64,000 nucleotides of DNA from Streptomyces albireticuli (GTDB taxonomy: Bacteria; Actinomycetota; Actinomycetes; Streptomycetales; Streptomycetaceae). Positions 27,332 to 30,907 of this stretch are shown here, in pieces. The DNA lies in contig NZ_CP021744.1 in the NCBI RefSeq assembly GCF_002192455.1, positions 5,861,501 to 5,925,500 of the forward strand. Reading direction: 5' to 3'. Numbering within the stretch: position 1 is the stretch's first letter; each line of letters begins with the position of its first letter. Below the pieces are notes generated by a model. It searched no databases, was not told the origin of the DNA, and worked only from the letters and a program-made list of their open reading frames with translations. The position numbers and the translations under genes were made by a program.

Positions 27332-27669
27332 CGGCCGGTCCCGTAACAGGGGGTCAGGCCGGCCCGGACGGTGCCGGCCGTGACCCGCGCCACGTCCTCG
27401 CGCGCGTCGGCGGGCCCGGCGGAGAGGCGGCGCCCCGCGCCGGTCGCCTTCCCGGGCGCGGCGCTCGCGCGGGGTGAGCAGGGCACGGCGCCCGCCGGCC
27501 GTCCGCCTCCCCGGGGCAGCCGGCACCCCCGTCACCCGGAAGGTGGACGCCCGTCCACGGCGCGCGCCCGCCGGCCGGGCCGGAGCCGGGAGCCGTGAAA
27601 TCGAACTCCGGGTAACGCTGTCCGGTACCCGACGGTAACAACCCCTAGCGGAGCGCCCGTCGGCGCGTT

Positions 27670-27675
27670 TATGGT
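27670..27675 (+). promoter_or_regulatory. Probable -10 box, leaderless start
   Basis: TATGGT is followed by six bases and then the ATG of the monooxygenase-like gene, with no ribosome site in between. This spacing indicates a leaderless transcript. No convincing -35 was found. Confidence 0.5.
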
Positions 27676-27681
27676 GCGGCC

Positions 27682-28581
27682 ATGCCGCACCTTCCCGACG
27701 TCGTGCTGTGGTCCGTACCCGCCTTCCTCCTGCTCACCGCCCTGGAGTTGGTGAGCTACCGGCGGCGCCCCGCCGAGCTGACGGGCGCGGCCGGCTACTC
27801 CGCCAAGGACGCGGCGACCAGCGTCGGCATGGGCATCGGCAGCATGGCCTTCGACGCCCTCTGGAAGATCCCGATCGTCGCCGTCTACACCGCCCTCTAC
27901 GAGCTCACGCCGCTGCGCGTGCCCTTCCTGTGGTGGACGCTGCCGCTGATGCTGCTGGCGCAGGACTTCTTCTACTACTGGTCGCACCGCGGCCACCACG
28001 TCGTACGGATCCTCTGGGCCTGCCACGTGGTGCACCACTCCAGCCGGAAGTTCAACCTCACCACCGCGCTCCGCCAGCCCTGGACGACGCTGACGGTGTG
28101 GCCGTTCTACCTGCCGATGATCGCGGCCGGGGTGCACCCGGCGGCGGTGGCCTTCTGCGCGTCGGTGAACCTCGTCTACCAGTTCTGGGTGCACACCGAG
28201 CGGGTCGGGAAGCTGCCGAGACCGCTGGAGTACGTGCTGAACACGGCCTCCCACCACCGGGTGCACCACGCCTCGCAGGGCGGCTACCTCGACCGCAACT
28301 TCGGCGGCATCCTCATCGTCTGGGACCGGCTCTTCGGCTCGTTCGTCCCCGAGGGCGAGCGCCCCGTCTACGGCCTGACGAAGAACATCGACACCTACAA
28401 CCCGCTGCGCGTCGCCACCCATGAGTACGCGGCCATCCTCCGCGACCTGCGGCGGGCGCGGAGCTGGCGGGAGCGGGCCGGGCGGATCCTCCGCGGGCCC
28501 GGCTGGCAGCCCGCCCCGGCGCCCGGGGCGGAGCGCGCCCCGGATCCGGCCCCGGCACCGGCCCACGAGCGGGCCGCGTGA
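27682..28581 (+). CDS. Alkylglycerol monooxygenase-like fatty acid hydroxylase family protein
   Basis: A 299-residue di-iron membrane oxygenase. Hydrophobic spans fill residues 5-20, 65-100 and 128-160. The His clusters are H102-RGHH, HVVHHS (115-119) and HHRVHH (191-196), the set expected for two iron atoms. Segments DFFYYWSHRGHH, FNLTTALRQPW, LVYQFWVHTE, LEYVLNTASHHRVHH and GILIVWDRLFGSF closely follow animal alkylglycerol monooxygenase (AGMO/TMEM195) as I remember it, more than sterol C4/C5 oxidases. AGMO cleaves ether bonds of glycerolipids. The stop overlaps the next gene as GTGA. The substrate is inferred. Confidence 0.85.
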   Translation: MPHLPDVVLWSVPAFLLLTALELVSYRRRPAELTGAAGYSAKDAATSVGMGIGSMAFDALWKIPIVAVYTALYELTPLRVPFLWWTLPLMLLAQDFFYYWSHRGHHVVRILWACHVVHHSSRKFNLTTALRQPWTTLTVWPFYLPMIAAGVHPAAVAFCASVNLVYQFWVHTERVGKLPRPLEYVLNTASHHRVHHASQGGYLDRNFGGILIVWDRLFGSFVPEGERPVYGLTKNIDTYNPLRVATHEYAAILRDLRRARSWRERAGRILRGPGWQPAPAPGAERAPDPAPAPAHERAA

Positions 28582-29267
28582 GACTCCCCCGGGCGGCCCC
28601 CGCGCTGCTCGCGGCCTTCGCCCTGGCCGCCCTCGCCCACCTGGGCGCCCTCCTCGCGGGATCGGCCGTGGCGACCGTCACCAAGCCCGCGCTGATGCCC
28701 CTCCTCGCCGCCCACGTCCTCGCCCGCGGCGGCCCCCGGCCGCTCGCCGGCGCGCTGCTCCTGGGCTGCGCCGGCGACACCCTGCTGCTGACCGGCGGGG
28801 ACACGCCCTTCCTGCTCGGCATGGCCTCCTTCGCCGCCGGGCACGTGTGCTACCTGCTGCTGTGCGCCCGGCACGGCACACCGGGCGGCCGCCGGACGTA
28901 CGGGCTCGGCGGTGTGTACGCGGTGGCCTGGCTGGGCACGGTGGCGCTGCTCTGGCCCGGTCTGGAGCCGGGGCTGCGGGTGCCGGTCGCGCTCTACAGC
29001 CTGCTGCTGACCGCGATGGCGCTCGGCGCGAGCCGCGCGCTGCCGCGCGCCGGCGTGGGCGGGCTGCTCTTCCTGGTCTCGGACACGATCATCGCGAGCG
29101 GCGCCGCCGGCTGGCCGCAGCCGCCCGTACCCCAGTTCTGGATCATGCTCACCTACCTGCCCGCGCAGCTCCTCCTGGCGGACGGGCTGCTGCGGGCGGC
29201 CTCCGCGGACCCGGCGGGCGCGGAGCCGCGGACGCGGGCGTACGGGGTGGTGCGCACGACCTCCTGA
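28578..29267 (+). CDS. YhhN/TMEM86-family protein (lysoplasmalogenase-like)
   Basis: A 229-residue protein with about seven to eight hydrophobic spans. Family landmarks are KPALMPLLAAHVL, LLLGCAGDTLLL (with the conserved Asp), FAAGHVCYLLL (conserved His) and LFLVSDTIIAS (second conserved Asp). The family includes enzymes that hydrolyse the vinyl-ether bond of lysoplasmalogens. It overlaps the monooxygenase-like gene by four bases, so both proteins are made together. The short C-terminal tail ends in RTTS. Confidence 0.85.
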   Translation: MRLPRAAPALLAAFALAALAHLGALLAGSAVATVTKPALMPLLAAHVLARGGPRPLAGALLLGCAGDTLLLTGGDTPFLLGMASFAAGHVCYLLLCARHGTPGGRRTYGLGGVYAVAWLGTVALLWPGLEPGLRVPVALYSLLLTAMALGASRALPRAGVGGLLFLVSDTIIASGAAGWPQPPVPQFWIMLTYLPAQLLLADGLLRAASADPAGAEPRTRAYGVVRTTS

Positions 29268-29340: not shown

Positions 29341-29363
29341 CACCCGTTCTCACGACCGGTGCG

Positions 29364-30907
<1,544 letters not shown>

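What the first reader, a model, noticed from the sequence alone, without database searches (positions are those of the whole stretch)
27682..29267. Possible ether-lipid/plasmalogen degradation operon: AGMO-like oxygenase overlapping a TMEM86-like gene
The first gene follows alkylglycerol monooxygenase closely at the His boxes (HRGHH, HVVHHS, HHRVHH) and in flanking segments (NLTTALRQPW, YQFWVHTE, LILNT/VLNTASHHRVHH). The second belongs to the YhhN/TMEM86 family, whose animal members cleave lysoplasmalogens. They overlap by GTGA behind a leaderless start, so they are made as a unit. Both known activities act on ether-linked glycerolipids, a pairing I do not know described in Streptomyces. AGMO needs tetrahydrobiopterin, which is not expected here, so the real substrate or cofactor may differ.
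Basis: partly seen in the sequence, partly recalled or inferred. Interest (0 to 1): 0.75.

Follow-up and report, generated by a model that had tools for sequence, protein, structure and literature searches.

The report
Conserved AGMO-like/YhhN membrane-lipid operon
Two overlapping Streptomyces genes encode membrane enzymes whose best-studied relatives both cut ether-linked fats; the pair is conserved across many actinobacteria and apparently undescribed, but the first enzyme has lost the residue that in animals holds its cofactor, so its exact reaction is open.

Summary
Window 27682-28581 encodes a 299-aa fatty-acid-hydroxylase-superfamily protein of the alkylglycerol monooxygenase (AGMO) type, and 28578-29267 a 229-aa YhhN/TMEM86 protein; they overlap by GTGA. 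Each is the only member of its Pfam family in the 8.14-Mb genome. The pairing is conserved: 80 of 103 YhhN-bearing Streptomycetaceae genomes have the two genes adjacent, and adjacent pairs recur in three clades of the AGMO-like tree (Streptomycetaceae/Nonomuraea; Micromonospora/Streptomyces with a GntR/FCD regulator in front; a third clade). A 4-bp stop/start overlap is possible in 23 of 26 pairs.

The residue test is split. All eight catalytic His and most further AGMO-essential residues are present, and other Streptomyces sterol-desaturase-type proteins lack several of these. But the glutamate that contacts tetrahydrobiopterin (human E137) is Val, Y236 is Phe, the protein is too short for human TM6-9, and the genome has no PTPS gene. 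YhhN keeps all five putative catalytic residues. No known plasmalogen-synthesis gene was found, so exogenous lipid is the likelier substrate.

Best reading: a membrane module that clears alkyl- and alkenyl-ether lysolipids, using an electron donor other than BH4. Functional linkage is strong; the substrate is inferred.

The parts
27682..28581 (+). AGMO-like di-iron membrane oxygenase gene (299 aa, PF04116); His ligands H102, H106, H115, H118, H119, H192, H195, H196 plus H171; V107 at the BH4-glutamate position, F207 at the Y236 position
   Evidence: ORF; PF04116 E=2.3e-29; residue test; AF2 model pLDDT 87.3, Scs7p-like at Z 6.1
28578..29267 (+). YhhN/TMEM86-family gene (229 aa, PF07947), predicted lysoplasmalogenase; K36, D67, H89, D169, Y193 match the putative active-site residues K68, D102, H125, D211, Y234 of the M. 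tuberculosis enzyme
   Evidence: PF07947 E=3.4e-33; conservation; eight-helix AF2 model pLDDT 93.3 with GPCR/rhodopsin/ACER3-like fold; PMC9052158
28578..28581 (+). GTGA stop/start overlap, probable translational coupling
   Evidence: Sequence; a -4 start is possible in 23 of 26 pairs examined
27637..27681 (+). Conserved upstream region (GGTAACAACC.CTAGC ... TATGGT) ending about 6 nt before the ATG; probable promoter of a leaderless transcript
   Evidence: Comparison of upstream 70-mers of relatives; no match to a sigma-70 consensus, so the sigma factor is unassigned

Best explanation
The two genes form a translationally coupled actinobacterial membrane module that breaks down ether-linked lysolipids. 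The AGMO-like protein would oxidise the carbon next to the ether oxygen of 1-O-alkyl (plasmanyl-type) lysolipids through a di-iron centre; the hemiacetal falls apart into a fatty aldehyde and a glycerol derivative. The YhhN protein would hydrate the vinyl ether of lysoplasmalogens to the same kind of products. Together they would clear saturated and vinyl ether lysolipids taken up from other organisms, for detoxification or as carbon. Because the BH4-contacting glutamate is Val and the genome lacks PTPS, electrons would come from another donor. Shown here: families, residues, conservation and recurrence of the pair, overlap, absence of PTPS and of a PlsA-type synthesis gene. Inferred: substrates, reactions, donor, physiological role.
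For: Single copy of each family in the genome, adjacent and overlapping. In 150 Streptomycetaceae genomes 85 have both genes, 80 adjacent and 79 co-directional; co-occurrence p=5e-10, not corrected for phylogeny. Outside the genus, in a class-wide sample, 26 of 38 genomes with the AGMO-like gene have YhhN, odds ratio 15. The pair recurs in three clades of the AGMO-like tree, on a Streptomyces plasmid between transposases, and with a GntR/FCD regulator in front in Micromonospora and Streptomyces. All eight catalytic His, H201, Q162, D233, N235, W243 and D244 of AGMO are kept, and Q162, D233, N235 separate it from other sterol-desaturase-type proteins. YhhN keeps its five putative active-site residues; the M. 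tuberculosis, Legionella and human homologues are active lysoplasmalogenases (PMC9052158). M. tuberculosis has such an enzyme although it makes no plasmalogens, a precedent for exogenous substrate; likewise this genome lacks PlsA-type DUF2229 (PF09989) with working controls.
Against: E137 is Val and Y236 is Phe in the window clade, and alanine at Y236 abolishes human AGMO activity. The protein ends near human residue 328, so it lacks TM6-9. No fatty-aldehyde dehydrogenase or lipid-uptake gene sits next to the window pair. Mycobacteria carry both genes unlinked, and only two of 49 non-genus YhhN genomes in the class sample have them adjacent. No published Streptomyces ether lipid was found as a natural substrate. 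A bacterial AGMO-like enzyme, PRUB680, acts on prodigiosin.
Confidence: 0.42

Rival explanations
1. The AGMO-like enzyme has a different hydrophobic substrate (an unusual membrane lipid, hopanoid-like compound, polyketide or pigment) and uses its di-iron centre for another C-H oxidation; YhhN acts on the product or on a related lipid.
For: The AGMO-like PRUB680 of Pseudoalteromonas rubra cyclises prodigiosin (PMC7911779, PMC6667630). E137V and Y236F in the window clade argue for a changed reaction or donor. Ornithine-lipid hydroxylase OlsE belongs to the same superfamily, though the window protein scores only 34 bits against a cut-off of 475.
Against: The fixed partner YhhN is a family whose tested members from human, Legionella and M. 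tuberculosis are lysoplasmalogenases, and the AGMO-essential residues other than E137 and Y236 are kept. The genes flanking the pair in the window are not biosynthetic.
Confidence: 0.33
2. The two enzymes act in sequence on one saturated ether lipid: the AGMO-like protein introduces a 1'-2' double bond (making a vinyl ether), and YhhN completes the cleavage by hydration, so that ether cleavage is split in two steps without BH4.
For: Tight translational coupling and recurrence of the pair in three clades suit an obligate two-step pathway. Loss of E137 and Y236 in the clade suits altered chemistry. Membrane di-iron enzymes include both hydroxylases and desaturases (general knowledge). No PEDS1/CarF match in this genome, but no control rang either.
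Against: No desaturase activity is known to me in the AGMO subfamily. Many relatives carry the AGMO-like gene without adjacent YhhN, and several genomes lack YhhN.
Confidence: 0.1
3. The pair is an ordinary operon of two lipid enzymes with independent roles, kept together only by descent in Streptomycetaceae.
For: Most of the adjacency lies in one family; mycobacteria keep both genes far apart.
Against: Adjacency recurs in three AGMO-like clades and in different families with distinct YhhN groups, and the overlap is kept although the YhhN sequences are only 35-72% identical to the window's.
Confidence: 0.15

Closest known systems
Animal alkylglycerol monooxygenase (AGMO/TMEM195, EC 1.14.16.5)
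   Same: Eight-His fatty-acid-hydroxylase motif, ninth His, Q162, D233, N235, W243, D244 at the same spacing.
   Different: Val for the BH4-contacting E137, Phe for Y236; 299 aa instead of 445, without room for TM6-9; no PTPS in the genome; activity untested.
TMEM86B / Legionella Lpg1991 / M. tuberculosis Rv1401 lysoplasmalogenases (YhhN family)
   Same: Pfam YhhN over the whole domain, eight predicted helices, K/D/H/D/Y set of putative active-site residues.
   Different: Encoded as the second gene of an overlapping pair with an AGMO-like oxygenase; activity untested.
PRUB680, AGMO-like prodigiosin cyclase of Pseudoalteromonas rubra
   Same: Described as a bacterial AGMO-like oxygenase that carries out C-H activation (PMC6667630).
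   Different: Acts on a pigment, from a locus away from the pigment cluster; its sequence was not compared here.
OlsE ornithine-lipid hydroxylase (NF052566) and other sterol-desaturase-family hydroxylases
   Same: Same Pfam superfamily and His boxes.
   Different: 34 bits against a cut-off of 475; the sterol-desaturase-type proteins compared here lack Q162, D233 and N235.

Membership tests
[quoted passage not shown]
   H102, H106, H115, H118, H119, H192, H195, H196; invariant in 98 proteins
Alkylglycerol monooxygenase (AGMO) | Further essential residues H201, Q162, D233, N235, W243, D244 | tested here: met
   H171, Q132, D204, N206, W214, D215; positions from PMC3617469 and PMC7911779
Alkylglycerol monooxygenase (AGMO) | Essential Y236 | tested here: not met
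   F207; Phe in 44 of 98, Tyr in 39, His in 15
Alkylglycerol monooxygenase (AGMO) | E137, contact to tetrahydrobiopterin, reported as present only in AGMO | tested here: not met
   V107; Glu in only 22 of 98, Val in 36 including the close Streptomyces relatives
Alkylglycerol monooxygenase (AGMO) | Tetrahydrobiopterin supply in the cell | tested here: not met
   No PTPS (PF01242) in the complete genome while nine controls rang; one Pterin_4a protein is present; salvage or a non-canonical route is not excluded
Alkylglycerol monooxygenase (AGMO) | 445-aa protein with nine transmembrane segments | tested here: not met
   299 aa; its end falls near human residue 328, before TM6 (334-354); and the numbering
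Alkylglycerol monooxygenase (AGMO) | Groups with animal AGMO in a tree | not testable with these tools
Alkylglycerol monooxygenase (AGMO) | Cleavage of alkylglycerol ethers | not testable with these tools
   Needs an assay
YhhN/TMEM86 lysoplasmalogenase | Match to the YhhN profile above the curated cut-off | tested here: met
   PF07947 115.3 bits, cut-off 25.6
YhhN/TMEM86 lysoplasmalogenase | Five conserved polar residues in the membrane helices (K68, D102, H125, D211, Y234 of M. tuberculosis) | tested here: met
   K36, D67, H89, D169, Y193, matched by motif and order; K36, D67, D169, Y193 are 98-100% conserved in 43 YhhNs
YhhN/TMEM86 lysoplasmalogenase | Eight transmembrane helices | tested here: met
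   Eight long helices in an AF2 model, pLDDT 93.3
YhhN/TMEM86 lysoplasmalogenase | Hydrolysis of lysoplasmalogen to fatty aldehyde | not testable with these tools
   Shown for homologues only (PMC9052158)
OlsE-type ornithine lipid hydroxylase | NF052566 score above the curated cut-off | tested here: not met
   34.1 bits, cut-off 475

The most novel reading that the evidence does not exclude
A two-enzyme, BH4-free route for cleaving saturated ether lipids in aerobic actinobacteria: the AGMO-like protein, with V107/F207 in place of the BH4 glutamate and tyrosine, converts alkyl ether to vinyl ether (or another intermediate) and the overlapping YhhN protein hydrolyses it.
Probability: 0.08. Interest if true: 0.8.

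Novelty: new variant of a known kind. Interest (0 to 1): 0.5.

Why it matters
If true, aerobic soil actinobacteria have a dedicated, widely conserved gene pair for degrading alkyl- and alkenyl-ether lysolipids. [quoted passage not shown] The bacterial AGMO-like set (22 of 98 with E137, the window clade with V and F) gives a natural mutant series for asking what BH4 does in AGMO. Smaller bacterial homologues may also be easier to handle than the labile animal enzyme, which has resisted purification.

Tried and rejected
OlsE or other sterol-desaturase identity: rejected on residues and scores. AGMO-YhhN gene fusion in L128 (Streptomyces sp. DHE7-1): reads in frame, but next to L130 the linker looks frameshifted, so not claimed. 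Solved-structure search by sequence, single and profile: no relative. Foldseek against the PDB gave nothing significant for the AGMO model; VIA-align gave only yeast Scs7p hydroxylase at Z 6.1 (161 aligned, rmsd 5.3), supportive of the superfamily and no more. Plasmalogen desaturase PF10520 in the genome: no match, but no control rang, so not conclusive. Conserved third gene next to the window pair: none found; the GntR/FCD regulator belongs to a different clade. Literature: no paper in the library holds both 'sterol desaturase' and 'lysoplasmalogenase'; subscription papers are not covered, so lack of description is likely but not proven. The primary PRUB680 paper is not held. Two of the extra sterol-desaturase rows (L164, L169) were fragments and carry no weight in the tree.

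Full report
OBSERVATION. Window 27682-28581 is a 299-aa ORF with ATG start and 28578-29267 a 229-aa ORF with GTG start; the stop of the first and the start of the second share GTGA. Pfam places them in FA_hydroxylase PF04116 (2.3e-29) and YhhN PF07947 (3.4e-33). Each family has this one member in the 8.14-Mb single-contig genome. Flanking genes look unrelated: an exonuclease with a BRCT domain and SURF1 on the minus strand upstream, and a subtilase on the minus strand downstream.

CONSERVATION OF THE PAIR. In 150 Streptomycetaceae genomes 99 have an AGMO-like gene of at least 41% identity, 103 have YhhN, 85 have both, and in 80 they are adjacent, 79 of them in the order AGMO-YhhN on the same strand; Fisher p=5e-10 for co-occurrence, uncorrected for phylogeny. 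Of the five genomes with both but not adjacent, two (G047, G138) have the YhhN gene at the very edge of a contig. A genome-contig scan with an alignment gave 80 loci; adjacent YhhN was found in most Streptomyces, in Kitasatospora, Streptacidiphilus, Nonomuraea and three Micromonospora. YhhN occurs elsewhere in the genome, not adjacent, in the mycobacteria, Nocardioides, Chitinophaga and Tenacibaculum examined; coordinates were compared by hand. In a class-wide sample 26 of 38 non-genus genomes with the AGMO-like gene also have YhhN, odds ratio 15, p=5e-12, again uncorrected; two of the 49 non-genus YhhN genomes have them adjacent (G248 and G377). A plasmid of Streptomyces sp. 3211 carries the pair between transposases, annotated as sterol desaturase family protein and lysoplasmalogenase.

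TREES. In a maximum-likelihood tree of 87 AGMO-like proteins the adjacent pairs fall in three places: the window clade (24 rows, 99/98), a Micromonospora/Streptomyces group inside a 17-row clade, and the L064-L066 clade (99/97). State changes number 9. In a tree of 43 YhhNs the paired ones form several groups with unpaired ones in between, though the backbone is poorly resolved. So pairing is either old and often lost, or arose more than once; either way it is maintained.

OVERLAP AND START. A YhhN start codon at -4 relative to the end of the AGMO-like stop is possible in 23 of 26 pairs, including Micromonospora; the others are -11 (Nonomuraea), +1 and -67. Upstream, relatives share GGTAACAACC.CTAGC and a TAYGGT-like hexamer about 6 nt before the ATG, which suits a leaderless start; the sigma factor is not assigned.

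AGMO RESIDUE TEST. Published mutagenesis of human AGMO (PMC3617469, PMC7911779) lists eight His, H201, Q162, D233, N235, Y236, W243, D244 and the BH4-contacting E137, said to be absent from other fatty-acid-hydroxylase proteins. At matching spacing the window has all His, Q, D, N, W and D, but V107 for E137 and F207 for Y236. Across 98 proteins the His, D233, N235 and D244 are invariant, Q162 is kept in 95 and W243 in 95; position 137 is V 36, R 26, E 22, others 14; position 236 is F 44, Y 39, H 15. The E137 state is therefore present in bacteria, for example Micromonospora L122, Polyangiaceae L135 and the YhhN-paired L064 clade. Four other sterol-desaturase-type proteins of Streptomycetaceae lack Q162, D233 and N235. 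The mapping to human numbering rests on motif spacing given in the papers, not on an alignment with the human sequence.

COFACTOR AND SUBSTRATE SUPPLY. The genome has no PTPS (PF01242; nine controls rang), one Pterin_4a protein, no PlsA-type DUF2229 (PF09989; four controls rang; that PlsA carries this domain is my own knowledge) and no PF10520 match (no control rang). Canonical BH4 synthesis and the anaerobic plasmalogen route are thus not expected. M. tuberculosis likewise makes no plasmalogens but has an active YhhN lysoplasmalogenase that protects against exogenous lysolipids (PMC9052158).

YhhN. The window protein has K36, D67, H89, D169 and Y193 at the places of the five putative active-site residues; all but the His are 98-100% conserved in 43 proteins (Micromonospora has Gln for the His). 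The AF2 model has eight long helices (pLDDT 93.3) and resembles GPCRs, rhodopsins and alkaline ceramidase 3 (Z up to 9.9, which for a helical bundle may mean only a common arrangement), in line with the published expectation of a rhodopsin-like fold. The AGMO-like model (pLDDT 87.3) matches yeast Scs7p hydroxylase at Z 6.1.

REGULATION IN A SISTER CLADE. In Micromonospora (L123, L136), Streptomyces (L128, L130), Aldersonia (L120), Patulibacter (L121) and a Tsukamurella plasmid (L173) the AGMO-like gene directly follows a GntR-family regulator, with an FCD domain in those scanned; with YhhN behind it in L123, L136, L128 and L130 this is a three-gene operon. FCD-type GntR proteins commonly sense organic acids or acyl-CoA (general knowledge), which suits a catabolic role. 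The window clade lacks this gene.

MECHANISM. AGMO chemistry hydroxylates the carbon next to the ether oxygen; the hemiacetal gives fatty aldehyde and a glycerol derivative (PMC7911779). YhhN hydrates a vinyl ether to the same type of products (PMC9052158). One membrane module handling alkyl and alkenyl lysolipids is the simplest common logic (inferred). The electron donor is unknown and unlikely to be BH4.

VERDICT. Observation confirmed; functional linkage strongly supported; ether-lipid substrate plausible but unproven; literal AGMO membership not claimed because E137, Y236 and the C-terminal region fail the test.

Noticed in passing
window 29361-30907 (minus strand): Subtilase (S8) gene next to the pair: N-terminal and C-terminal parts, the latter with GTSMASPHVAGVAALL, lie in different frames, so the gene is frameshifted or the sequence has an error there.
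   Followed up: partly
L120, L121, L123, L128, L130, L136, L173: GntR/FCD regulator directly upstream of a sister clade of AGMO-like genes, making a GntR-AGMO-YhhN operon in four of them.
   Followed up: partly
L170 (Streptomyces sp. 3211 plasmid p3211-1): The AGMO-like/YhhN pair lies between transposase genes on a linear plasmid, so it may move as a unit.
   Followed up: no
L172 (P. aeruginosa plasmid pF076): A 407-aa AGMO-like protein with Glu at the E137 position (HRMGHE) sits between transposases.
   Followed up: no
L122, L123, L135, L139, L064 and others: 22 of 98 bacterial AGMO-like proteins carry the glutamate that a 2013 review held to be unique to AGMO; whether those hosts make BH4 was not tested.
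   Followed up: no
L128:5917-7527: AGMO-like and YhhN read as one open frame; linker looks like a frameshift rather than a real fusion.
   Followed up: partly
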